The notes beneath the pieces were generated by a model, which was not told where the DNA came from, did no database searches, and was given only the letters and a program-made list of their open reading frames with translations. From contig NW_022985574.1 in NCBI RefSeq assembly GCF_010093815.1, forward strand, positions 220,656 to 284,374: a stretch of 63,719 nucleotides of DNA, read 5' to 3'. The stretch's first letter is position 1; each line of letters begins with the position of its first letter. The position numbers were made by a program, and so were the translations under genes. Source of the stretch: Pseudovirgaria hyperparasitica (Eukaryota; Ascomycota; Dothideomycetes; Acrospermales; Acrospermaceae). Of this stretch, positions 15,475 through 52,680 are shown in pieces.

Positions 15475-15518
15475 ATGGCGGTGAATCATGATCCGGAAAT
15501 GATATCGCCGGCAGAGAC

Positions 15519-16919
15519 GTGCCGCAGACTGTCAGATATACAATGGATTACGGTCGATCCGCTGAGAGCCTGGCTCCCCAAGGACCGATCTCATTGATCA
15601 AACTCATTCGTATATTGCTTTCGGTCGAAGAAGCAGAGCAAATACAGCGTCAATTTGACCATGAGTGCCGTAAAGACTCGCAAGTGTTGTGGACTGGCAT
15701 ACCACGCGAAAAGGCCCAAGCATGGGCCGACAAGAGGAATCTTCAAACCTTGACAACAGTAATGGGCCCACTGATGGATGAGCGACACTCGTCTTGCTTG
15801 AAACCGAAAAAATCGGCCCGTCAATGGACCATCTACGTGAAAGGCGCATCCGCCCTGTTCGCATGCCACATACTAAAGAGCTCAAAAGTTACCGTCCTGT
15901 CACCCCCTCCGCCGGAGAAGCTTAATCCAAGTGGATATACGAATTACCAGCTCATCGAGGAACCCATCTTGAAGGGTGTGATCGGTGGCCGCTGTGTGAA
16001 GTCTATTCATATGATACATCCAACTGTCAAAGGGGCCGAAGAGTTCAGCTACCAAAGTTGGCCGATCGATAGGACTCAAGAGTGGGCCGAAAAATTCCCA
16101 TCACCAGAGATAGTGCGGATTCCATGGAGACTTGTCAAGATCTTGCCAGAAATGCAGCACATCAGGGCGATAGTGACCATTGCTGGCAACGACAATTTCG
16201 TTGATCCTAGGTCACACCTCCCATCACAAGCTCTTGATTTCGCAACAGTGACTACCCTAGAGGCGGTTTGTGAAGTCAGATTTTACCTGACGCTACATGT
16301 TGATCACGTAAATGCTGATTCCCTACAGTGCTCTAAACCTGATGGTTCACATGTCCAGAAAGTGACCTGTGATATCGCGGCGACGAGGCTCACAGAAGAG
16401 ATTGCAATGAGAAAGAGAAAGGTTGATAAGGAAATAATGACAACCAGTAAGCCAAAGCGCAAGAAAGAGAATGAGGAGAAGGAAAGGAAAGCAAGAGAGG
16501 ATAAGGCGAAGAGGAAGATGGAAAATATGGAGAAGGAGAAGAAGGCTAAGGAACAAAAGGTAAAGAGAGAGAGGCAAAAGGCACAGCAGAAGATAGAGAA
16601 CAAGGAGAAGGAAAAGAAAGCACGGGAAGAGAAAGCGAGGAGGAAGATGGAAAGCAAGGAGAAGGAGAAGAAGGCCAAGGAAGACAAATTGAAAAAAGAG
16701 AAGATCAGGGCTCAGCGGAAGAAAGAAAACGAAGAAAAGGTAAAAAGAGCAAAGGAAGCTAAAGTGAAGAGGAAGATGGAGAACAGGGAGAAGGAGAAGC
16801 GCGCCAGGGAAGAAAAGCTGAGGAGAGACAATGCAAAGGCACAGCAGAAGAAAGAGAATGAGGACAAGCAAACACGTACAACGAAAGACAAAGCGGGGAA
16901 AGCAGGCCAAAAACGATAA
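15519..16919 (+). CDS. Hypothetical 466-aa protein with Lys/Glu-rich coiled-coil tail
   Basis: A long open frame of unknown family. Residues 1-295 look globular; residues about 300-466 are repeated blocks of the kind KRKMENxEKEKKAREEK with very high Lys/Glu, predicted as a long charged coiled coil or single alpha helix. An intron could be hidden at about 16273-16327 (GTCAGA..CTACAG, with CTGAC inside), which would remove 18 residues without breaking the frame. The other frame just upstream (ATG at 15475) encodes MAVNHDPEMISPAETCRRLS and then WITVDPLRAWLPKDRS, which reads naturally into residue 25 of this frame, so the true start may be 15475 with an indel near 15590. The minus-strand Leu/Phe-rich frames under the tail are shadows. 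Confidence 0.6.
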   Translation: MPQTVRYTMDYGRSAESLAPQGPISLIKLIRILLSVEEAEQIQRQFDHECRKDSQVLWTGIPREKAQAWADKRNLQTLTTVMGPLMDERHSSCLKPKKSARQWTIYVKGASALFACHILKSSKVTVLSPPPPEKLNPSGYTNYQLIEEPILKGVIGGRCVKSIHMIHPTVKGAEEFSYQSWPIDRTQEWAEKFPSPEIVRIPWRLVKILPEMQHIRAIVTIAGNDNFVDPRSHLPSQALDFATVTTLEAVCEVRFYLTLHVDHVNADSLQCSKPDGSHVQKVTCDIAATRLTEEIAMRKRKVDKEIMTTSKPKRKKENEEKERKAREDKAKRKMENMEKEKKAKEQKVKRERQKAQQKIENKEKEKKAREEKARRKMESKEKEKKAKEDKLKKEKIRAQRKKENEEKVKRAKEAKVKRKMENREKEKRAREEKLRRDNAKAQQKKENEDKQTRTTKDKAGKAGQKR

Positions 16920-31785: not shown

Positions 31786-32228
31786 TCTGGTAGCTGAAGC
31801 TGGTTTTTGTCCTCCTAGGAAGGCCGTCACCTCGGCGATGCTTCCTAAGGGGTAGCTATATCTCCCCTTACACAAAGGAACTTGTCAAAAGCATTTGACA
31901 CTCACGATATCTGAACACCTTCGCCAAAACCAACGACAAAGGAACCTGTAGCCCAACAGGAAAAACACTACCACGAAGGGACACACCACAGTCCCGGAAA
32001 AAGAAATTACGGCAACAAACTTTGACGACTACCCGTCCCAATAGTCTCAACGGATAGTGGCATATCACAAGACAAGCAAAGACCAAGGAAACGAAAATTC
32101 TTCATTGACGCTCCCCGTACCCGCAATGGACCTCCCAGCCACTTGTCAATATAAGTTGACGACCTAACTCCAACTCGGAAGATAATCACCACCTCAGAAC
32201 TCCCCTTTCCCTAACAAGTTATACCGAG

Positions 32229-33400
32229 ATGTCTCTTCCCCAGAACCCCGATCGCGACGGCGACGTCCCTATGGACGGAGCAACCGCTCCCCAAAGTACG
32301 GGACGCGCCCGTAACGCTCCGTCAATGAATGTTGACGTGCTTACCGCACTTCTCAGTGCTGATCCGGCCACGAGAGACCTCACTGGAGACGCTCGTACGA
32401 TGGCACTTATTAACATATGTACCAACCGACTCGAGTCTTCCCTACGTGCCTTCGGCCAGTCAACAGTGTTTACCAAGATGGACTTAACCACAGGATTCTG
32501 GCAAGTACGTATTAACAATGAAGACGTCCCGAAAACCGCTTTCAACACGGTCTACGGCAAATACGAGTTTAAGGTAATGCCGTTCGGTCTGTCAAGCGCA
32601 CCTGCCACATTCCAAAAGATGATGAACAGAGTCCTTCAACCTCTATTACACAAATCCGTGGTTGTGTACTTGGACGATATCATTATCTTTTCCGAAACCA
32701 TGGAAGAACATGTGAGAGTGCTGTCAAAAGTACTTGTCTTACTCCGCGAATATCGTTTGCTTGCCAATCCGGAGAAATTTAGCTTCGGCCAGGCTGAAGT
32801 TGACTTCTGCGGACACCACGTCTCGCAAGGACAACTTCGTCCTATGAAAGATAAGTTTCAGGCTATCCGCGAATGGCCGGAACCCACGAACGTTAGCGAA
32901 GTTCGACAGTTCCTTGGCCTAGCAAACTACTACCGAAGGTACATTAGGGGATTTACAAGCATCGCAGCACCTTTGACAGACCTTCTCAAAGAAGCAGACC
33001 CGCTCATCCGAAAGCAGAAGTACAGGCCCATCAGATGGACGCTGTCAACAGCGTTTGCCTTCAAAACCCTTAAGAATGCCCTATGTTCTGAGCCAGTCCT
33101 TGCTCAGCCAGAAGAAACGAAACCCTTCTGCATTGAAACGGACGCAAGCAACTACGCGATCGGCATGGTGATCTGCCAAGAAGATGCCGACAGCCAATCG
33201 CGTTTGACGGGAGAAATCTCAATGGCGCCGAGCTCAATTACCCAGTACACGAAAAAGAACTTCTTGCCTTCAAACACGCCCTACGAACTTGGGGATACTT
33301 GCTAGGAACGAAGAAGACCACGATCCTCACCGATCACCACAGCCTACAGTTCCTTAAGACCGCCAAGGACAAGGAGGCCGTGTATCCAAGGCAGTAGTAC
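32229..33400 (+). mobile_element. Ty3/gypsy remnant: gag start fused to RT palm
   Basis: One 358-codon frame (32229-33305). Residues 1-75 look like the start of a gypsy gag (MSLPQNPDRDGDVPMDG, then TNRLESSLRAFGQ). Without a break it continues at RT motif A, STVFTKMDLTTGFWQVRI, through GLSSAPATFQKMMN, the catalytic VVYLDDIIIF, and FLGLANYYRRYIRGF to the RNase H start CIETDASNYAIG. So the rest of gag, the protease and the RT fingers are deleted in frame. Near 33215 a shift moves RNase H to another frame (NYPVHEKELLAFKHAL, LTDHHSLQF) until about 33400, where the element ends at regulator-derived DNA. Few RIP-type stops, so younger than the hAT relic. No integrase or 3' LTR seen. Confidence 0.85.
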
Positions 33401-38750: not shown

Positions 38751-39287
38751 AAGTCACATGGAATAGAAATGACGTGTTTTGATAGCTAGATCTTGGCGTG
38801 TGCGGAGCAAGCTACTCATAGGCCCATCAGAAGCGGCTTGCAGCTAATACATGCGGATGCTCTCGAATGAGAAAACCCCGCAGATTCGCGGTACTTGTCT
38901 GCAGTATTCTATCCTCGTATCTGTATCCAGTCAAAAATCAGGCAGTTACTGACAAGGACCCTCACCGCTATTGTTGGTTCCTATTACGAATTCCATGAAC
39001 TATATATGTTGCCTGCTGACTTTAGTATGAACATTGTCCAAGCCATATCCCAAACTACAATTTTTGTTCTTGGAGGTTGTCTAGCATAGATCATTGGCTA
39101 CGACAAATAGCTCTAATCAATCAATTATCGGCACTTTGATACATTCTTCGAACTTTTGCTACTCAAGAGCATTCCTATTAATGTGGAGTGGTTTTGGTCA
39201 GTTGGATCTCAAGAAGTGTGATCTCTTTCGCTCACAGGGATATCTCGAAGCCTTGTCCATCGACGCTCTCCATTTTTTAACTCTATT
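38751..39287. other. Upstream of collagen-like gene
   Basis: Short frames, none convincing. This stretch should contain the promoter and 5' UTR of the gene starting at 39288. Confidence 0.3.
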
Positions 39288-39884
39288 ATGCTTCAATCAC
39301 GCGACAATACCTCCGACTCAGCAAAGATAGGCGTCATAATTACTTTCAGTCTTGTCTTCGGCATACTGATTTTGGTGTTATGCTGCGTATCTCAAAAATC
39401 TAAAAATGTGTACCACTCGGATGTTGAAAGCATCTCAATCATTCCGATGAGGAGACTCCGTATAATTCGCGGCGCAGCTGGCGCTGATGGGGCCCCTGGT
39501 CCTCCAGGACCTCAGGCTAGACCTGGCACATGTGGTCCACAAGGGATACCTGGACCTCAGGGAGTACCCGGACCTAATGGAATGCCTGGACCTCAAGGAA
39601 TGCTTGGACCTCAGGGGGTACCCGGAGCTCAAGGGATATCTGGGCGTCAAGGACCAGCTGGCGAGCGTGGTGAAACGGGATCGCCAGGACGTGACGGCTT
39701 AGCAGGTAGGTCCGGGTCGCCCGGTCTAGAGGGTCAAAGGGGTAGAGATGGCAGAGATGGCAAAGACGGTAGAGATGGTAGAGATGGAAGGGATGGCATA
39801 CCTGGTGCACAAGATGAACAGGGACCCCAGGGTACACAGGGACTTCCAGGAGAGCCAACTTCTCCTCCTCAAGTTCCTGCTTAG
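39288..39884 (+). CDS. Membrane-anchored collagen-like protein
   Basis: 198 aa. Residues 1-12 polar, 13-34 a single hydrophobic helix ([20 protein letters not shown]), a basic linker with PMRRLRIIR to about residue 61, then about 43 Gly-X-Y triplets to residue 192, and a short Pro-rich end. Pro is frequent in X or Y ([16 protein letters not shown]) and the second half has charged triplets ([12 protein letters not shown]). Two interruptions: Gly to Ala at ARP and Gly to Asp at DEQ. The layout predicts a type II single-pass protein with the triple helix outside the cell, like fungal collagen-like surface proteins. Minus-strand frames over the repeat are shadows. No cysteine knot; one Cys (GTC) within the repeat might link chains. 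The start could lie in an upstream exon. Confidence 0.8.
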
Positions 39885-41639
39885 ATCCGCAGATTGGGAC
39901 GCGTATTGGGCGGGGTCAACAGAGCGTTAATGTAATTTTGACAGGCTAAGTTGCGAGCAGGCTGCATGTAGAGTACCACAAATGACGAAGACACCTGTAT
40001 ATGCGGTTATGCAGTTGCCTCACTTCCAAATCTCAAGCGCCGTGGGGAAATGCCCACCTTGACGGGAAATGATGCTACCTAATCATGCATCAAAGAGATG
40101 ACGTGGCATCTGACAGTACGTCAATTCAATTGTCTGGGCGAAGAGAACAATAGATCACCTTACAAGCGAACATCCGCGCCATTTCCGTCGATCTTGAAAT
40201 CGTATATTGTTGTTCGTCAAATTGCAGGGCGAGCGCATGATAGTGGATTGGGTTTGATAAAGATTTAAGCTTGATCTAGTTCATATCCTGTACCATATCA
40301 ATGGCTCCAGAGACTATAGCGGTGTGGGAGATGGATCACAGCCGTTCTTGAGCTCGACGAGGCCGAGAGGACCAGTGATACTTGATGTTGGCCTTCAATG
40401 ACGAGGAGTTCCTCCACTTGCTCATCCACATCCCACACGGTTTGTGCCCCCACTTTCGATGATAGGCGCCTTTGCCTTCACACGAAGAACAGTAAACCTG
40501 CTACTGCTTGATGTGCCCATGTGACAGGTATGCATCCACATTCAGCCCAAGCTATGTTCCCGAGCCTATTCGCCACAGAATCACAGCATCTCGCATCCGC
40601 CCCTGATCCTTACCATCTCTTGAACCAAATTTTGTACGTAATGGCAATACGATGCTCACAACCTCGGATACATGGAAGAATGGAGTGCAGATGAACATTG
40701 CCGCCAGCGAAGGTTGGAGGTGGAAGCTCTCATCTTGCATTTTCTCAGTGGTCGCATTATTTGGAAAGCCGTCATGGGCGAAGCATCGATAAGAAAGTGA
40801 GGAGGACGTCGTATTTGCTGGCAAAGAGTTGTCGATCATATTCGTCAGAGGATGGCCTGTAATTATTCATCAGGCTGAGCTGAAAGAGGTGTTAAGACGT
40901 GCACTGCCAAGAGGAAAGACGGGAAATATGGTTGCTAGCGACACATCTCAACAGACTGCACTGAGTAAACATCGCAGCTGCTGATTGGTGGTTACCAGTT
41001 CCGTGCAGGTTGTAGTAAGCTAAGCTGTGGTAGATTTAAAGAGGTGGGCTGGCAATGTAAGGGACCAGCTGAGGTGGAGTAAGGCAATGGTGAAGTAGCC
41101 TTGCGTAGGTACCTTACCATGTTTAATGGGACACGTAAGCATCTCAAGAATATAAGCGGAGGCGATGGACCGCACTCGCAGACAAATTATGCTTATAAAA
41201 TATAGAATTCTTCTGATAAGGTAGAGGAAAGAGAGCCTTTGCGGGACGATTGTCTCATGTCTTTCTTTGTAAGGGAACGACTGGCCGTGCCGATGCGCTG
41301 TATCTTCTGACTGCAGGCTCTAGCGCGTGCAAATAATGGACCTCCCGCTCCCCCGCTCCCCCGCTGCCTCGATATCACGTACATGAATGGTCTTAACTCT
41401 GCATCAGCTGGATGGAAGGAGGCGCTTCCTAATTGATCGCGTAAATAGGCCCTTTATTCTACTGAAAGTCAATATCTGTTTTCCAGCCAGTCCTCATAAC
41501 CCTTTGGCAGTCTCCTCCTGTGACGTCTTGGCCACCTTTCTACATCCCACCACTGTGATTTACTGGAAAGAAATTCGCTATTCGACAAAAGTGAGAAGGT
41601 ACTTTGCGAGTCTACAATATAACAGAACAAAAAAGGGCG
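39885..41639. other. No supported gene
   Basis: A frame of 95 codons at 40552-40839 (minus) and several shorter ones lack conserved features. A CCGCTCC triplication lies at about 41343-41366. The end of this stretch (41591-41625, GTGAGA..AACAG) may be a 5' intron of the next gene. Confidence 0.3.
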
Positions 41640-42635
41640 ATGACATTTCCCAATAATTATTCATATGATCACCAAATTCCCCCAGTTTTAACTGATCCGC
41701 GATGCATTGCTCCAGTCAAAGGGCCGAAGCGTTGTGGCGGCAATATCAGCACGAATGATCTTGAAGAAAGCCAGAAGCTAGGCAAAGTGATCGAGACTAT
41801 GGGTCAGGATAAGAGAAAATCCGTTCTGAAAGATATCATTCTGCTTCATGTTTGTAAAAACACCCATCGCCAGAAACTTGAAGAAGAGAGCGAATGTTTG
41901 GGCAGACTCGTACAGAAATACGATGCGTCACTCCTACCAGAACTTTCAGGCCCAAAGTCGCTCATCAAAGAATCTATCGTAACCGATCCTCAACTATTTA
42001 TACCACGGTTCGGTCCATGTTCGTCAGATCTATCAAATACGGTCAAAGAAGTTCTTCGGAAGCAGATAAATCCAAATCAGGCTAAGTCAGGAACGGTCTA
42101 TGTGTTTGCTTGCCCATCTGCTCCGGGATATGTGAAGATCGGATATGTCAAAGAATCTATAAAGAAAAGAATGGCAAAGTGGAATAAATGCCATCCTCAG
42201 GCTAGCCTACTGTATGAAGAAGCTTTCGCATTCCCAGAGCGTATGGAGAAGTTGATCCATCTCGAGCTGGCTTCTCAAAGACGTTGTCTCCTAGGATGCA
42301 AATCGTGCGGAAAAGATCATATCGAATGGTTTCAAGTATCAATCGAGGAGGTTCGTCGGTTGATTCAAGACTGGAAGTTGATCACACAAGAATCTGAACT
42401 GTACAGTCGTGATGGGCGCTTGTCGAGCTATTGGATCGAAAGGCTTGCGGTTAGTGGTAAGTTTATAACTGCCAAAGGACTTTTGCGCGTTTCAAAAATA
42501 GATTTGATGACGTCGAACCCTGTGCTGGCCTATTTTGAAGACTCTGCCATCTTCGATACCTGGCAAAGTCCTGACTCGAGGAAGAATGAAGATATCTTGG
42601 CAGAATCATTCGCGAAGCTGGGACTTGCAGGCTAA
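41640..42635 (+). CDS. T5orf172/GIY-YIG-like domain protein
   Basis: 331 aa from the ATG at 41640; the frame is open further 5', but only non-ATG codons lie there. The N-terminal third has a Cys/His cluster (RCIAPVKGPKRCGG..LLHVCKNTH) as in fungal members. Residues about 155-260 carry the T5orf172 (DUF1766, GIY-YIG superfamily) core: GTVYVFACPSAPGYVKIGYV, KRMAKWNKCHPQ, AFPERMEKLIHLELASQRR and HIEWFQVSIEEVRRLI, where GTVYVF..VKIG replaces GIY..YIG. The family binds DNA and may act as a nuclease; in fungi the role is unknown. No breaks, good codon use, so likely functional. Very common as an expanded family in Pezizomycotina accessory regions. Confidence 0.85.
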   Translation: MTFPNNYSYDHQIPPVLTDPRCIAPVKGPKRCGGNISTNDLEESQKLGKVIETMGQDKRKSVLKDIILLHVCKNTHRQKLEEESECLGRLVQKYDASLLPELSGPKSLIKESIVTDPQLFIPRFGPCSSDLSNTVKEVLRKQINPNQAKSGTVYVFACPSAPGYVKIGYVKESIKKRMAKWNKCHPQASLLYEEAFAFPERMEKLIHLELASQRRCLLGCKSCGKDHIEWFQVSIEEVRRLIQDWKLITQESELYSRDGRLSSYWIERLAVSGKFITAKGLLRVSKIDLMTSNPVLAYFEDSAIFDTWQSPDSRKNEDILAESFAKLGLAG

Positions 42636-44961: not shown

Positions 44962-45194
44962 AATATTCAACGCTAATATCGTTACGATTGAAACTGAGCC
45001 GTGAGAGATTCTGTCCTGGTGACTAGTCGCCAGCTGATCATGAAACCACATCGGCTTCCACCTGCCCTTTCCAGCGAAGAATTTCAGAAGTGGACTTGCC
45101 GAGGCTTCATATTGAAGTCCTGCCCCAAAGTAGACTGGCCTTTGGACTGTCGACAAGCCTTACCAAATCTGCGACTCGGTACTCATACTTGATA

Positions 45195-45440
45195 ACGAGG
45201 AAGTCCAGAGTATGGACAGCCCAGATCTTTTGGCGTTTACAGACAGCTTGCAGAAATCAAGTGCATCGCAAGACGCGCACAGATTCAACACGGCTTGGCT
45301 GCAATGGCAGGCGTTCATTAATGATGTTCGAAAAGTCAAGGTTATCACAAGTGTGTTGAAGCATTAGTTGGAAAGGACGAGCACTCGAAAGAAGATGGTA
45401 ACAGTCAAGTACCAGTTCAATATGGGCTACTATCTTCTCG
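45195..45440 (+). repeat. Duplicated segment, longer copy (pair of 47890-48045)
   Basis: Contains SPDLLAFTDSLQKSSASQDA then WLQWQAFINDVRKVKVIT in one frame, ending at a TAG. The other copy has the two flanks of this stretch joined with the middle 90 bp deleted. Family not recognised. The 206-codon minus frame over this DNA looks like a shadow. Confidence 0.6.
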
Positions 45441-46228
45441 CAAGAACTGGAGTCACCTGCGGCGAAGCCCAGCCCCCATTCGTCCTTCTCACTGTACCTG
45501 GCGGGCATATGATCAATTTGTCCCAGGTCTTTGGACTGACTTAAGATATCCTCGGGCGCAACGAGTATATCGAAGTCGGCCAGTATACCAGAAGCGCTCT
45601 CGCTCCCATTGCAACTCTTCTCTGAACTCGAGACTCTCAGACAACCAGACTTAACAGGTTGAGGGTGCGAGATTGGCGGAAAGTCGACTCCCTTTTCCGA
45701 ACGGATTAGCCCCATACTGGATAGGTAGGGATACACTTCTAGGCATACCGACAGTGAAAGCCCCTTAAGTATAGTAGAAAAGCAGCTATAAATAGAAGAG
45801 GCACGGAGTGAAAGTGACAAGATCCGGTCCGAGATCCGAAGCGGGCCGTCATTACAGCTGATCTCTTTACATTTCATTTCTAGTTAGTACTCTCGATACA
45901 GCATTGAACAGACTTTTGTGCGTGTGCGAGATAGACAGATCGTCCGACACCCGAGATTCCGTTACCGGTCGTGCAAAGGAAGTCCTCAGCCGTCTGCTTG
46001 ATCCTAGTATACGCCTGGATCCCCGAAACTGGGCCAAGTTTGCTAAATATAGCATCATACTGTATTGCACCCGGACGCCTTTGAAATCGTAATCTTTTTT
46101 TGGTAGCACATCGTTAGCATAGCCCATGAAACATGTTTGATGATACACAGGGATGATTCTAAGCAATGTATAGTATAAAACCTGTTTGGTCAAGCTAGAG
46201 GGCTGCTTGGGAGATACTTCGTACAACG

Positions 46229-47138
46229 ATGGATGACCAGTCTTGCCGTCCAAATATGAGTATCTACAGCATCACGCCTCCAGACAGCGAAGTTGCGCTC
46301 TGTGCTGGTGGCCCTGACAACCTTAATGCCACTTGGGAGAATTGGACCTTTCCTTCGAGCTCTCCACCGGCGATCTTATATCGAAACAACCTAGGGTCTG
46401 GACACATGACAGCTGATTCCTCCGACTTGTTCGCTGACGTCAATGAATACTCCTTTGAGCCGGACTTGAATCTTCTGAGGGCACAATGTCAATCTCCGTG
46501 GCCAATCGAGTTCCAACAAGAAAACTGGGAGTCGCTGCAGGAGACGACCGCAACATGGAACACCACGTCAGAAGATATCTCTTGGAGAGAATGTGAGCCT
46601 CGGGTCGTCCAGACAGACCCATATCATGGACTCCCTGAGCAGGTAGCATTGCTCGAGCTTCGTATGACCCAGGAAGAGTATTGGACAGATCAGCTCCAGC
46701 TCTGTTCTACTCGGCTGGATGCTCGAGCATTTGACTTGGAAAAGAAGTCAGGTTCCTATCAAGGCAGGATTGACTGCCTGGAGGAGAAAGTAATTGCACT
46801 AGAGGGAAGCAGAGAGTTGCTACAGCAAAGCAACGCACAACTCGAAAAGCAGATGAATTCTGCATCAAAGCAGATTGACCGGCTCACGGAGCAGAACACG
46901 GCGCTCCGGTGGTAAGTTGACTGTGCTCTACCTGTCCCCGCATGAGGTCTCATGGGCTGATGGTACACGAAGGGATCTCGATAGCGTAAAAACGTATCTC
47001 GAGCAGTTCCAGGACTGGTCCTTTGAACTCAAAAACTCTGTCGACTCGATCGCGAGCAGTTGCAAGCAGCAAGAGGACGACGGTTCGGAACGGAGACTAA
47101 TAGCTCTGCGACCAAGAAGCGAGACAGCATCGGTTTAA
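46229..47138 (+). CDS. Hypothetical coiled-coil protein (two exons)
   Basis: Coding 46229-46911 and 46973-47138, 282 aa, with a 61-bp intron (GTAAGT..CGAAG; CTGAT branch). ATG in good context (ACGATGGA). Residues 1-140 are acidic, Ser/Thr/Trp-rich, probably disordered; residues about 145-230 form a long coiled coil (VALLELRMTQEEYWTDQLQL, CLEEKVIALEGSRELLQQSN, KQIDRLTEQNTALR) continued after splicing (DSVKTYLEQFQDWSFELKNS). No frame breaks. Family not recognised. It sits between the two copies of the 45.2/47.9-kb duplicated segment. Confidence 0.6.
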
Positions 47139-47889
47139 CCTCGGGCTTATCTGAGACTGTCGGTGATGGCATTCATAGTTATCTACAGACAGGTCCCTAT
47201 CGTAATTATCTGAGAGCTGTATAGCTGCATAATATAGTTCAGCCTAAGATAGCCTGTTGCATTGTGCTTTGACGCCTTATGTATCCGAATTCGACGTAGG
47301 TTTCCGAATTCAGCTAGGTCTCGTGCCCATCCAGAAACCGCTTCATCGGCAACGTTAACTAAGTGAACGTCAAGTCATGATATAGGACGTCCGACTAGGA
47401 GCTTATACGTGTTTCAGCTCGATATGAGCAACTTCAATATTATTTGTTTCATATGCCAATTATCTCATGATCAAATTGTAAATTTATCGATATATGACAT
47501 AGCTAACGCAGATCTTATATTACCTTCGAAAGAAATCAATGCTCAGACAGAGTGAAACTCCACACAGCAGTAGGGACAGTGATGTTGACAAGTCATGCCC
47601 GGTACTTGTTACGTGGACAGGATCGCCTAGCATTACTGTTGGGAAAGCCGTGCCCCCGACAAAAGACCCTGTTCCAGTGCCCCAAAGAACACTCTGCGTC
47701 GAGTTTGGGTATGGATATGGAACTTTGTTTGACAAGGGTGGCGCAGGTGAGAGTGGAGAGAAGCGAGCGACATCAGAAGTGTCGAGGACAGAGCTTGGCA
47801 TCAATGGGTCATCGATCTGTGAGCTTCCGTCCTCTGCTCCTCTCCAAGTGGTTTGACGAAGCTCCGATGACGATGACGTCAGGGTTGGC
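47139..47889. other. No supported gene
   Basis: AT-rich to about 47520, then overlapping frames of 105-152 codons on both strands (47520-48010) with no conserved look. Confidence 0.3.
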
Positions 47890-48045
47890 AAATTTTTCAG
47901 AAGTGGACAACCCAGATCTTTTGGCGTTTATAGACAGTCAAGGTTATCACAAGTGTGTTCAAGCATTGGGTGGAAAGGACGAGTACTCGAAAGAAGATGG
48001 CAACAGCTAAGTACCAGTTCAATACGGGCTACTATCTTCTCGCCG
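47890..48045 (+). repeat. Duplicated segment, deleted copy (pair of 45195-45440)
   Basis: Frame NPDLLAFIDSQGYHKCVQAL corresponds to the left end of the longer copy joined to its right end. The next 60 bases (CCTGGCGGGCATATGATCAA near 48088) are also shared, with 45494 onward. Confidence 0.65.
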
Positions 48046-48275
48046 TTATGACTGCGTCATCACAAGCTCACATTCGTATTTATCTTTGTACCTGGCGGGC
48101 ATATGATCAAACGTTTCTCTTTCTAGTCACCATGCCTGTTATATGTAGGACTCCTGTTACATCTCTATAACTTACATTTCATCGCAGCCAGCCTAGAGAC
48201 TTGCCTCGGAGTGAGAGCAATGAATGGGAACACGGACTAAATTAAGCTGATCAGACTACATGTACATTGCTCAGG

Positions 48276-48345
48276 TCTTACTTAGCTAGACTAGACAGGA
48301 CTGTCAATCAACTTTGTCACGCTTTACTCTACCGAAGTTCCCAGA
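48276..48345. mobile_element. Possible gypsy LTR scrap
   Basis: Resembles the last part of the candidate LTR at 31591-31785 (TCTTACT..AGACTAGA..TGTCAATCAA..GAAGTTCCCA) with a deletion. Weak. Confidence 0.35.
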
Positions 48346-48661
48346 TTGAGAGGGCGCAGGCTCCACGTGCCTAACGTTGCGTGGCATTTCGCTGATAAAC
48401 TGCATTATACCTTGCAGTGATGAGGGCGCGCAGGAAGCTCTCTGCATATCCACGTACTCTGGTAGGAGGCTCAGCAAGTTCTTGGCAGCGTCAATTCCGT
48501 AGCGGCTTAGTCGTTGGTAGCTTCGCCCCTCAGGCATGTTAGGAATAAATGAAAACCCCCTTCCATAAGAAATTATATTCTCTTTGATAACTCTAGAATT
48601 AAGACTCCAGAAAGCTTTCTAACTGTATCTAAAAGTATATTTAGATATTATTAAGAAAACT

Positions 48662-49578
48662 TCCAATAAGAAGATCGTCATCGGCGCAGCCCTCACCGCC
48701 CTCGGTGCCGCCAACATCAGCCACGTCACCGTTGCCTTCCTCGGCGCCCTGAGCACCGTCATCGCAGGCCTGGTCACCTATCTGCGCTCTCGCGGCCAGT
48801 CAATGCGCGCTCGCATGTTCCGCGACGACCTCGAGCGCGTCGTAGATGAGATAGAAAACAGCGAAATCATGTGGCTGGGCATACAGAAGGGTGTACATGG
48901 CTACGACGAGATCGACGTCGACGAGGTCAGCGTGCGCAGCGAGGTCGCCCGCCTCACGCGTCTGTACGATCGCGCTATCAAGAACCACCTGCAGAGCAAC
49001 CCTGAGGGGGTTTTTGAAACCTCAGTTGACCTTCGATTTTTGACGTTTCTGACCTCCAATTCCCGTTTTTCCGCCGAGTATTTGAAACCGTATCTCACCT
49101 CCAGCTTAAAACCCGAGCTGATGACCAGGGTTTAAAGACGGCGTGGTACTAAAGGAAGACGGCGTGGAACTAAAGGAATGTGGCTTCGGGATGGCTAAAC
49201 TTACCTATATTAGGTATAGTTAGAGGTCAAAAATCGACGTTTTTGAGCAGCAAGTATTTTTCGCACGTCGAAAAACTCGAATCTATTCGATTTCGCCTAT
49301 ACTTCGGTAAATTAAGAGAAGCCTAAGAGAAACCATGGATTTAGTATAGACGGACGCCGTCTAAGCGCTTAAAAATAAGGTTATTCTGGAGGTCAAAAAT
49401 CGACCTGAGGTTTCAAAAACCCCCTGAGCTGCACCAGGGTGGTGGTGCCATGGACGCCACCATGGCCATGAGGGCTCGTCCGGTAGGATCGTCGCCTGCT
49501 GCCGCCCCGACGGCCCCTGGGCCCGAGGCTGCAGATGTGGGCGCTGTCGCCGCGCCCACAGGCCCTGTGCCCCCGTAA
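48662..49578 (+). pseudogene. SLATT (2TM effector) domain gene, split by an insertion
   Basis: Left part 48662-49006 and right part 49429-49578, with a 417-bp element between. The left part reads KIVIGAALTALGAANISHVT, FLGALSTVIAGLVTYLRSRG and MRARMFRDDLERVVDEIENS, then VRSEVARLTRLYDRAIKNHL: the fungal SMODS-and-SLOG-associating 2TM effector (SLATT) domain, two helices followed by a basic coil. The right part continues in the same frame with HQGGGAMDATMAMRARPVG and a Pro/Ala-rich end. SLATT domains are predicted membrane-perturbing effectors of bacterial nucleotide-signalling defence; in fungi they are common and of unknown role. The coding block is GC-rich and starts abruptly against AT-rich DNA at about 48660, so the first helix and ATG are missing. 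The gene is inactive twice over. Confidence 0.75.
49007..49423. mobile_element. 417-bp inverted-repeat DNA element
   Basis: Ends are a 19-bp perfect inverted repeat, GGGGTTTTTGAAACCTCAG, with a further shared inner TCGATTTTTGAC block. CTGAG flanks both sides (49002-49006 and 49424-49428). Because the terminal G runs are ambiguous, the target duplication may be 3 bp (TGA, ends GGGGG) to 5 bp. No transposase frame. A related GGTCAAAAATCGACG block occurs inside at about 49227. Non-autonomous element of undetermined superfamily. Confidence 0.82.
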
Positions 49579-49919
49579 GATCTTTGTCCTTCTCGGGAAT
49601 TTTACCCCACGGGAATGAAGCGACTTCAGAGGTGTACATGGAAAGATGACTTGACTGTCTCAATTCAAGGGGGTCGCCTTTTTGACACGGTGTCATCAAT
49701 TCTACGTCGCTCTCAAGAGTTAGATTCATTCATTCAAAATACAGGAAAAGATCTGTATACATAGTCTGAGCCTGACTATCTAAGAGATCGCGCAATCTGT
49801 CAGAGACAACGCTTTGAACGTGCCTCAATCATAATACTGACTGAGAACAAAAGTCTGTGTGTGGGTCTCAATTATCCAAGCAGGGACAAAGCGCTCAGTG
49901 AAAACAAAAGTACCGAGGT
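49579..49919. other. Intergenic
   Basis: No recognisable feature. Confidence 0.3.
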
Positions 49920-50250
49920 CTACCAAACTGTGGTCTTGTTGTGCACCTCCGTCAACGGCGGTTGACGAGGTACTATTTCCACCAGCTTTGAAGGGTCATG
50001 CCATTCAACAGCGTAAACAAAGTGTATGTGCTCGCCTTCTTCCTTAACCCGATACCCAATCTTGAACATATCTGTAATTAAATCCACAGTCCATCCTGTA
50101 AAGCCCGCCCCATCTTGAAAATGTAGTTTGCATACTGAGCCTTCCATCTCTTCAACAAGTAATGGGTTCTCTCTCTCTTTGAAGTAGGGAGTTTTATTCT
50201 GAAGCCCGGTTTTAAGCCACATGTCTTCGAGCTTGGTGAGATCTTCAAAG
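49920..50250 (-). CDS. Conserved-looking exon, family unknown
   Basis: The minus frame reads FEDLTKLEDMWLKTGLQ, KTPYFKERENPLL, MEGSVCKLHFQDGAGFTGWT, VDLITDMFKIGYRVKEEGEH, then HFVYAVEWHDPSKLVEIVPR and ends VHNKTTVW. The composition is that of a folded, conserved protein exon. Before it (about 50250-50330) the frame WDDPFREVVLV is followed by stops, so an intron or decay lies there. I do not recognise the family. Confidence 0.45.
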
Positions 50251-50330
50251 ACTACTCACTCATGCCTTACTTTCTAGACCAAGACCACTTCACGGAATGG
50301 GTCGTCCCATTTGCTTTTAGTTATGCTTCT

Positions 50331-51156
50331 TACGAGAGCTATAATGGACAGGTTTGCTTCTACTATTATCGTCTTGCCTTTAGGGAGAGTAAAATTAGAG
50401 TTATTTATCCTAAGAAGAGTAGTTTATCGTTACCGTAATTGAGTCGTCGAAAGTCAAGGTAGCTAAGACAGAGCACATGACTCGGCTCGCGATTACTGTA
50501 GCACTACTGCCTTAAAGTAAAGAAATCGGCGAAGATACCACGAATATGACAGCACCCTCCCATCCACGCTGATGCACTCCACCGCAGTCACCATTGTCCG
50601 TTTCTCGCCGGCGCCTCGATGCTCGGAACCAAATCTGTGCTTTTCTTGCTTCAGCTATACCTCTTAGAGATACCGACATCGTAGTGCATATCATGACCAC
50701 GTGACTCCCGAAAGATGCGTAGCAGATTTACGAGGGAAATATTTGTTAGCTCTCTGCCGCAATGCATTCATCTGCAACCAAATCAGCGCCCCTGGTCGTC
50801 CCTCACTCGAAAGCTGGACACGAGGGCACGGTACTCTGCCACACTACCCAGCAATCACTGTATTTGAAGAAGACATAGACAAAGAGGACAGGTCTAATAT
50901 TATTTTTGATCAAGAAAATCCAAAAGCCAAAGGCAAATCTTTCCGTCAAGCTCTCGTCTCTGTGTGCTCTCTAATTTCGCGGCCTCGGCGTCCTCCTTGC
51001 TCTCTTCGCCGTCGGCTCCCTTCTCGAGTGAGTCTGCATCCGGTCTGCCTGGGAGAAGAAGGAGAAGAAGGAGAAGCCCTGGACTCGAACAGATATTACA
51101 TAAAGCCTCCTGTAGTCCTCATCATGAGCGGTGGAGCTCATTATGTAATCTTCGAA
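50331..51156. other. Weak frames only
   Basis: A plus frame at 50701-51162 (153 codons) contains LESWTRGHGTLPHYPAITVF but has no clear family and ends in low-complexity Arg/Glu. Could be a fragment; evidence is too thin to call a gene. Confidence 0.25.
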
Positions 51157-52680
51157 TTATAGAAAAGACAGCAAAAATCTTGCTGTAATGCGGCTTGTGT
51201 ATTGTCGCCAGTTGTGCATGGAAACGGCCACGCGTGTCCGCTCTTCAAGAAAATTCCCTGGAGAAATTAGCAAAGATCCAGTGACCAAGGGGGGAATGAA
51301 ATTTGTACTTTTGTCTTGGATGAGCGAACTTAGTTTCTGGAGGCATGTGATCATTCCCGGTTGAGTGATCTTCGCGCTCCAGTCATTTTTACAATCTTTG
51401 ATCGGATTACAGCTGCGAGCATACTTCTTTTGGAAAAGCTCTATGATAATGTCGAAGCATCCGTCAATTCTTCGGACAGCTTCATTTGCGCTTTCCTCCG
51501 CGAAGCTCCTCTCAAAATCTCCTTGACCCACTCTACCATCCAGAATACTGTTAACATTCTTCTGGATGCCTTCGACAGCAATGGCTAAACCAAGAACGAT
51601 AATGAACGCATCGGTCCATTTATCGTAGCCTTTACTACCCTCCAGCATGTTTTGCAGACGTCCTAGTAGCATCTTCACCATTTCTCTCTGTAATCGTGCG
51701 TAGAAATGTTTGATTTGTCGGTTCGCCAGACGCGGCGAAGTCTTGTCGCCGTAGTCATCTGGTCTATAGTTTGATAGCTTTGAGAGGATGTCAACTTTGT
51801 GTTCGTCAGGTATGGTCAAAATGTGTGCAACAATATAGGTGGTGATTATGAGATAATAAACTTCCGTCAGTAATTTCTCCTCCATGTTATTAGCAAGGTG
51901 TCCAACGACCACGTCACGGGCATGTGCGCTCATACCTATTCGGCTCCCTGAGTAGGGTAGATGTTAACTAGACACTCGAACATCTGTTTCGCGAATTCTT
52001 CCTTTTCACCCACATAGTACTGTCCGACAAAGGTGGGCATGAAATGAGTAGCGATCTGTTTGACGTGAGTGTCATATTTGGTCTCATCCTCAGTAGAATC
52101 AATGCTCTGTAGCCCAAGTGGAGGCGAAGCCTTTTCTACACGAATGTTTTGGCCCGTTTTTGCGTCCTTGAAGTGTTGGAATTGCCGTAACAATACAGGA
52201 TTACTCGGCTTGAATTCATAAACGTCAACTTCAAGCCAGGGCAAGCGCCATCCTGGCATCAATTGGATCTTGATCATAGACTTTCCCCAATCATGGACAT
52301 TCGTTTCGCACAGTTCGATTAACGTCTTTTTGCTGTGGAGGTCGGAAATCCAGGCTATAATCTGTTAGCACTGTTCAGTATACTCATGTTCGGAACATAC
52401 GTGGTAGGGAGAAAAATCATAAGATCAGGAAGTGTATCACGACAGCAGCCTAGTTTCCAATCATGACTTGGATTTTGAGATCGATTTCGCCTGGGTAGCA
52501 CTGAAACGGTCTGCTGAGCTATGGCTCTAGAAGAGTGGACTGCTCCTACTTCATATCTCTGAATCATGCAGGGCCAACAGACAGGTGCTTTCTGGTCTGT
52601 AACGAAATTATCCTTCGAGGCGGAGCTAGCTCCTTGCCATGTAGGACCCGGATCCGAGAACGCCAATGGTAGATGTATAG
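51157..52680 (-). pseudogene. Zn2Cys6-like regulator, degraded
   Basis: Minus strand. Near 52590-52550 the frame reads APVCWPCMIQRYE, the first half of a degraded Cys cluster. An acceptor near 52357 opens WISDLHSKKTLIELCETNVH, WGKSMIKIQLMPGWRLPWLE, FKPSNPVLLRQFQHFKDAKT and FVGQYYVGEKEEFAKQMF to 51936. Then a different frame (51933-51157) gives LLTEVYYLIITTYIVAHILT, RLQREMVKMLLGRLQNMLEG and AFIIVLGLAIAVEGIQKNV, the helical C-terminal half common in this fungal regulator group. The break at 51936/51933 has no convincing intron. Zinc cluster incomplete, so likely non-functional. Confidence 0.55.

What the first reader, a model, noticed from the sequence alone, without database searches (positions are those of the whole stretch)
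48662..49578. SLATT 2TM effector gene cleanly split by a TIR element; excision would leave the frame intact
Seen: coding frame to 49006, a 417-bp element with 19-bp perfect inverted ends and CTGAG on both sides, then the same frame resumes at 49429 to a TAA at 49576-49578. Removing the element plus one CTGAG keeps the frame. Known: SLATT domains are predicted effectors of nucleotide-signalling defence in bacteria and occur widely in fungi. Inference: a fungal immune-like effector was disarmed by transposition, recently enough that both halves have no other break.
Basis: partly seen in the sequence, partly recalled or inferred. Interest (0 to 1): 0.78.

Follow-up and report, generated by a model that had tools for sequence, protein, structure and literature searches.

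The report
Transposon inside a dead gene fragment
In a repeat-rich stretch of a fungal genome, a small cut-and-paste transposon sits inside a leftover piece of a membrane-protein gene whose complete copy survives elsewhere in the same genome, so nothing appears to have been disarmed and the case is close to ordinary.

Summary
In detail: a 417-bp element with 19-bp perfect inverted ends and CTGAG on both sides lies at 49007-49423 inside a SLATT_fungal frame. The coding piece (48672-49582) is an internal fragment, residues 91-254 of 336, of a gene whose complete copy lies on contig C16, 97-98% identical, with one CTGAG and no insert. The fragment has no ATG before its membrane helices, lacks most of helix 1, and differs at two residues invariant in all 20 aligned proteins. 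Its TAA lies at the joint with a piece of a C8 gene. A C6-derived neighbour keeps an intron-like stretch, so at least that piece was copied as DNA. The element is a PHIS-superfamily MITE of NuwaII type; a 3.7-kb relative on C48 encodes a DDE_Tnp_4 transposase and a sub-threshold Myb/SANT match. Flanks of 3 of the 4 elements readable at both ends fit a 3-bp but not a 5-bp duplication; the describing paper could not decide, though it thought 3 bp likelier. Host: Pseudovirgaria hyperparasitica. Interest is low.

The parts
48553..48668 (.). AT-rich short repeat that ends a few bases before the gene fragment; copies on C20, C18, C5, C2 and C3, some as opposed pairs
48672..49006 (+). Left part of an internal fragment of a SLATT_fungal gene; 98% identical over 335 bp to the complete gene at C16:560744-561078 (-)
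   Evidence: Pfam
49003..49005 (.). Target site duplication TGA, left copy (inside CTGAG 49002-49006)
49006..49424 (.).
49007..49025 (+). Left terminal inverted repeat (19 bp perfect)
49405..49423 (-). Right terminal inverted repeat (19 bp perfect)
49425..49427 (.). Target site duplication TGA, right copy (inside CTGAG 49424-49428)
49424..49582 (+). Right part of the same gene fragment; 97% identical to C16:560590-560748 (-)
49576..49578 (+). TAA next to the joint; the parent gene has no stop here
49580..49945 (+). Fragment of a different gene (1932-aa ORF with DUF6606/DUF3638 matches; C8:658691-659050), 93% identical; shares the 3 nt ATC with the end of the SLATT fragment
51054..52592 (-). 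Piece related to C6:1323438 onward, 89-90% identical, with an intron-like GTATGT...GCTAACA...TATAG stretch retained; pieces of it also on C48 and C35
47904..48441 (.). Multi-copy repeat to the left (97% on C54, 89-91% on C38, C39 and C59)

Best explanation
A piece of about 0.5 kb from the middle of a SLATT_fungal gene (complete copy on C16) was copied into a repeat-rich patchwork region of the Pseudovirgaria hyperparasitica genome, next to pieces of unrelated genes and repeats. Shown: the truncation at both ends, the intact parent, two empty sites, and the joints as assembled. Inferred: that the copying was DNA-level, by repair or recombination; the evidence is an intron-like stretch kept in a neighbouring piece and a 3-nt overlap at one joint. 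A PHIS-superfamily (NuwaII-type) MITE inserted at a CTGAG in this copy by cut-and-paste, duplicating TGA. The transposase was probably supplied by a two-ORF relative such as the one on C48 (inferred). As it stands the locus has no ATG from which a protein with both membrane helices could start, so the insertion most likely had no effect on the organism (inferred). Whether the insertion came before or after the truncation is not resolved.
For: C16 gene: 336 aa, full PF18142 match (profile 1-121, 3.5e-33), 97-98% identical to both window halves, without insert. A further piece on C39 also has the CTGAG site uninterrupted. Window frame: no ATG before 48803. It covers parent residues 91-254 of 336, with replacements at two residues invariant in all 20 aligned proteins, the parent included (20 chosen from the 120 listed). 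The model of the parent puts helix 1 at 62-101, so most of it is lost (mean pLDDT 56.5, helix blocks 70-85). Right joint to a C8 gene piece with shared ATC. Intron-like stretch kept in the C6-derived neighbour. 80% of window 45000-52500 (5999 of 7501 bases) has at least one match elsewhere in the genome. Element: 15 matches in the genome including itself, and TNA on both sides in 4 of 4 elements that I could pair end to end. The C48 relative has DDE_Tnp_4 at 5e-29; its presumed D-D-E residues (78, 151, 202; assignment recalled) are invariant in all 13 aligned sequences, itself included.
Against: The intron-like stretch is in a neighbouring piece and is recognised by motifs and a break in the parent's ORFs only; the SLATT parent is one open frame, so intron loss cannot be tested on the SLATT piece. 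Only one joint shows a clear overlap. A full-length duplicate that took the element and later lost both ends is not excluded. Joints were not checked against reads, and repeat-rich regions can be misassembled. The Myb/SANT match on C48 is below Pfam's cut-off (17.5 bits against 23.6), and that element's right end differs from the TIR at 4 of 19 positions. Several silent differences have C or G in the window and T or A on C16, so they may be changes in the C16 gene instead. No transcript data.
Confidence: 0.92

Rival explanations
1. One reading: a working SLATT effector gene at this locus was recently disarmed by the insertion.
For: Clean insertion with perfect 19-bp ends and open frames on both sides; fragment 97-98% identical to the intact gene.
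Against: Fragment lacks residues 1-90 and about 82 C-terminal residues, has no ATG before its membrane segments and carries replacements at two residues invariant in 20 aligned proteins. An intact copy stays on C16. Nearest other full-length element copy found only 80% identical.
Confidence: 0.04
2. A sub-case of the best explanation: a full-length duplicate of the C16 gene arose here, was hit by the MITE, and only later lost both ends in rearrangements.
For: Order of insertion and truncation is not fixed by the sequence; repeats and gene pieces flank both ends.
Against: No trace of the missing 5' or 3' parts next to the fragment: the C16 match stops at 48672 and 49582. The C39 copy is also a truncated piece, so partial copying is seen twice.
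Confidence: 0.15
3. The element is spliced as an intron, so the locus still makes a protein.
For: Frames on both sides are in phase.
Against: The element starts GGGGG and ends CCCCC, not GT...AG. The C16 gene and the C39 piece have nothing at this site. A product spliced at the element's ends would still lack an ATG upstream of the membrane helices.
Confidence: 0.01
4. The gene pieces came in as retrocopies joined by template switching during reverse transcription.
For: A reverse-transcriptase ORF lies at 32160-33305; pieces of unrelated genes lie side by side.
Against: The C6-derived piece keeps an intron-like GTATGT...GCTAACA...TATAG stretch; no poly(A) stretch is visible at the two SLATT joints.
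Confidence: 0.08

Closest known systems
NuwaII group of the PHIS (PIF/Harbinger-ISL2EU-Spy) DNA transposon superfamily, PMC4482050 (passages and section 8 read)
   Same: C|TNA|G target, TIR beginning GG, TIR length within 13-46 bp, and a relative of 3.7 kb with a DDE transposase ORF and a second ORF with a sub-threshold Myb/SANT match.
   Different: The paper lists NuwaII in 12 species whose only fungi are 2 basidiomycetes; this host is an ascomycete. The window copy is a 419-bp non-autonomous element. Three of four elements here have flanks that fit 3 bp and not 5 bp; the paper could not decide from its empty sites and judged 3 bp most likely.
SLATT_fungal family, PF18142
   Same: The fragment matches profile positions 28-121 at 1.2e-25; the C16 parent matches 1-121.
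   Different: The window copy lacks the first part of the domain, a start codon before it and the native C-terminus.
Bacterial SLATT effectors of nucleotide-signalling conflict systems (PMC7159879, passages only)
   Same: Two-membrane-helix domain of the SLATT superfamily (by family name).
   Different: Pore formation is a prediction there; the surroundings of the C16 gene were not examined for such a system.

Membership tests
NuwaII transposons (PHIS superfamily) | Target C|TNA|G with TNA duplication | tested here: met
   3-bp TNA identical on both sides in 4 of 4 elements that could be paired: window TGA, C22 TAA, C48 inner TTA, C21 TAA with its two halves taken as one. These use 8 of the 12 end matches; 4 single ends stayed unpaired. 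C48's inner pair was chosen with its TTA flanks in view, supported by the outer element's halves that abut it. A likely full copy on C11 could not be fetched.
NuwaII transposons (PHIS superfamily) | TIR of 13-46 bp, most beginning GG | tested here: met
   19 bp perfect in the window plus a further outer G/C
NuwaII transposons (PHIS superfamily) | Autonomous members encode a DDE transposase | tested here: met
   The C48 element of 3689 bp holds PF13359 at 5e-29; left TIR exact, right end 4 of 19 mismatches; presumed D78, D151, E202 invariant in all 13 aligned sequences, itself included
NuwaII transposons (PHIS superfamily) | Second ORF with a Myb/SANT domain | tested here: inconclusive
   466-aa ORF in the same element matches PF12776 at E 0.0085, 17.5 bits, below the cut-off of 23.6
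NuwaII transposons (PHIS superfamily) | Transposase falls in the NuwaI/II clade | not tested
   No reference set of named NuwaII transposases was at hand
SLATT_fungal (PF18142) | Profile match above the curated cut-off | tested here: met
   90.3 bits against 26.5 for the left half
SLATT_fungal (PF18142) | Complete domain with both membrane helices and a start codon before them | tested here: not met
   Profile positions 1-27 absent; first in-frame ATG at 48803; starts at parent residue 91 inside the helix predicted at 62-101
Immune-like pore-forming effector | Pore formation or cell-killing in response to a signal | not testable with these tools
   Predicted for bacterial SLATT (passages); 1 paper of the library holds SLATT, fungal and 2TM together, and 9 hold SLATT, domain and effector (listing only)
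Retrocopy | Introns lost | tested here: not met
   Intron-like stretch kept in the C6-derived neighbour; the SLATT parent is one open frame, so its own piece is uninformative

The most novel reading that the evidence does not exclude
The repeat-rich contigs of this fungus take up DNA-level fragments of core genes again and again: SLATT pieces on C26 and C39, pieces of the C6 gene on C26, C48 and C35. They are stitched together at short overlaps into a patchwork that RIP does not erase because the pieces are short, and TIR elements then colonise the pieces. That would make the region a running record of templated DNA repair in a filamentous ascomycete.
Probability: 0.3. Interest if true: 0.45.

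Novelty: new member of a known kind. Interest (0 to 1): 0.2.

Why it matters
It removes a false example of an immune-like fungal gene being disarmed by transposition. It also gives a case of a NuwaII-type element family in an ascomycete whose flanks bear on an open detail (3-bp or 5-bp duplication), and points to a patchwork of core-gene fragments that could be used to study how repeat-rich fungal regions acquire gene pieces.

Tried and rejected
Rejected: 'recently disarmed effector' (fragment cut at both ends, intact parent); 'spliced intron' (no GT...AG at the ends, parent empty at the site); CTGAG as a 5-bp duplication (fits the window copy but not the 3 other elements paired); strong RIP as the cause of decay of the SLATT piece (left part: TA/AT 0.50 and (CA+TG)/(AC+GT) 1.13; the usual RIP thresholds are recalled). 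The window element itself has 1.26 and 0.61, a mild lean towards RIP that I did not follow up. The 'recent' claim is left open.

Led nowhere: tRNA and Rfam scans of the window found nothing. No solved structure matches the SLATT parent by sequence at E up to 1. The AlphaFold model of the parent is of low overall confidence and was used only for helix limits; no fold search was run. Paper searches on fungal MITEs, gene-fragment patchworks and the host species gave papers seen in the listing only. The last 620 bases of the window, which are the contig end, show no telomere-like repeat.

Full report
What is in the sequence. The end sequence occurs twice in the window with up to 3 mismatches, against a mean of 0.05 in 100 shuffles. 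The left half matches PF18142 SLATT_fungal (1.2e-25), but only from profile position 28; the right half matches nothing.

Where it lies. The window is G000:C26:220656-284374 of a 35.0-Mb assembly in 59 contigs, and ends at the contig end, where the last 620 bases show no telomere-like repeat. The C16 gene product is identical over 336 aa to a record named Pseudovirgaria hyperparasitica, on a contig of 905562 bases, the length of C16. That species is in Acrospermales, Dothideomycetes.

The interrupted sequence is a fragment, not a gene. In the same genome C16:560744-561078 matches window 48672-49006 and C16:560590-560748 matches window 49424-49582, at 98% and 97%. On C16 the two parts are continuous through a single CTGAG. 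The C16 gene is one 336-aa ORF with the whole SLATT_fungal domain (profile 1-121, 3.5e-33), and 580 proteins match it at E up to 0.001 among the 7998 candidates that were scored, a capped number. The window piece covers residues 91 to 254 of 336. Its frame opens after a TAA at 48620-48622, and the first ATG in frame is at 48803, after both membrane segments as the parent's model places them: first long helix at residues 62-101, second at 107-130 (mean pLDDT 56.5, about 70-85 in these helices). Most of helix 1 is missing. Of 11 differences from the parent, 6 are silent and 5 are not; of the 5, two change residues invariant in all 20 aligned proteins (the parent and 19 homologues, chosen from the 120 listed) and one makes the TAA at the joint. 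For several silent differences the window has C or G and C16 has T or A, so the change may lie on the C16 side. The TAA appears where the C16 match ends and a match to another gene, C8:658691-659050 (93%), begins, with the three letters ATC shared. The genome holds PF18142 matches at three places: C16, the window, and C9 in two stretches; 0 of 14 control genomes matched.

A second empty site. C39 carries another piece of the same gene (60, 23 and at least 183 bp of it, with two internal deletions), and there too the CTGAG site is uninterrupted.

The surroundings are a patchwork. Left of the fragment lie multi-copy repeats. To the right come the C8 gene piece (49580-49945) and, from 51054, a piece related to C6 at 89-90% whose other pieces lie on C48 and C35. 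The C6-derived piece keeps a stretch that reads as an intron on the gene strand (GTATGT...GCTAACA...TATAG) and falls in a break between the parent's ORFs, so it was most likely copied as DNA. Of 7501 bases between 45000 and 52500, 5999 (80%) have at least one match elsewhere in this genome. That union used 40 of the 47 other-place rows and 3 of the 8, with the matching rows; the rows left out lie inside intervals already counted, save one that would add a single base. The stretch 49946-50932 has no match elsewhere.

The element. The genome has 15 matches to it, itself included, and these are lower bounds; the nearest other full-length match, on C22, is 80% identical, and shorter pieces reach 86%. 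A search for the end pattern with up to 3 mismatches gave 13 sites, against 1 for the reversed control pattern. Four elements could be paired at both ends: window, C22, C48 (a 3689-bp element nested in a relative of the window element) and C21 (two halves about 17.7 kb apart, taken as one). They use 8 of the 12 end matches; the other 4 stayed unpaired. The right end of the C48 inner element differs from the TIR at 4 of 19 positions, and I chose it with its TTA flank in view; support comes from the halves of the outer element, which abut it on both sides. All four share 3 bp, TNA, on both sides. Read as 5 bp, only the window copy has identical flanks (1 of 4). The 3689-bp C48 element encodes a DDE_Tnp_4 transposase (5e-29) and a second ORF with a weak Myb/SANT match (E 0.0085, below cut-off); the presumed D, D and E residues (assignment recalled) are invariant in all 13 aligned sequences, itself and 12 of the 120 listed relatives. 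The family search for PF13359 found 2 places in this genome, C48 and C21; 1 of 14 control genomes also matched. The C21 copy has 8 stops in the transposase stretch and dinucleotide values typical of RIP (TA/AT 1.87, (CA+TG)/(AC+GT) 0.18, taken over 3.7 kb from its left end; the typical range is recalled).

Comparison with the literature. PMC4482050 (passages and section 8 read) describes NuwaII within the PHIS superfamily by a C|TNA|G target, two ORFs (DDE; Myb/SANT) in most autonomous elements and TIRs mostly beginning GG. It says that its paralogous empty sites could not decide between 3 and 5 bp, judges 3 bp most likely, and lists 2 basidiomycetes as the only fungi. The family here fits that group in the features tested, with the Myb/SANT feature inconclusive and the clade not tested. 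A library search for NuwaII found 3 papers, the other two seen in the listing only. SLATT as a nucleotide-responsive pore-forming effector is a prediction made for bacterial systems (PMC7159879, passages only). In the library 1 paper holds SLATT, fungal and 2TM together, and 9 hold SLATT, domain and effector (listing only).

Mechanism and verdict. A gene piece was copied into a repeat patchwork and a NuwaII-type MITE inserted in it. Shown: the fragment, the intact parent, two empty sites, the element family and its TNA flanks. Inferred: repair or recombination as the copying route, transposase supplied in trans by a C48-like element, and lack of effect on the host. Not resolved: whether insertion or truncation came first, and how old either is. 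The finding is close to ordinary; interest 0.2.

Noticed in passing
L036 3262-7335 (C48:10261-14334): A 3689-bp two-ORF PHIS element (TTA on both sides) inserted inside a non-autonomous relative of the window element: nested elements of one family.
   Followed up: partly
L038 4997-6653 and L046 3877-4821 (C21): A second copy of the 3.7-kb element, with stops and dinucleotide values typical of RIP, in two halves about 17.7 kb apart with matching TAA flanks.
   Followed up: partly
window 51054-52592; L052; L053: Pieces related to one C6 stretch occur in three repeat-rich places (C26, C48, C35) with different internal deletions.
   Followed up: partly
window 32160-33305 (+): Reverse transcriptase and RNase H ORF (RVT_1 1e-31), a retrotransposon polyprotein piece.
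   Followed up: no
window 41595-42635 (+): 346-aa ORF with T5orf172/MUG113 domain matches, 1.8e-18.
   Followed up: no
window 39222-39884 (+): ORF with a collagen-like triple-helix repeat match, 3.9e-21.
   Followed up: no
window 15492-16919 (+): 475-aa ORF with no Pfam match at E up to 0.01.
   Followed up: no
L034 4660-5065 (C22): The C22 copy sits in a near-palindromic target: inverted arms of 31 nt extend beyond the TIRs into the flanks.
   Followed up: no
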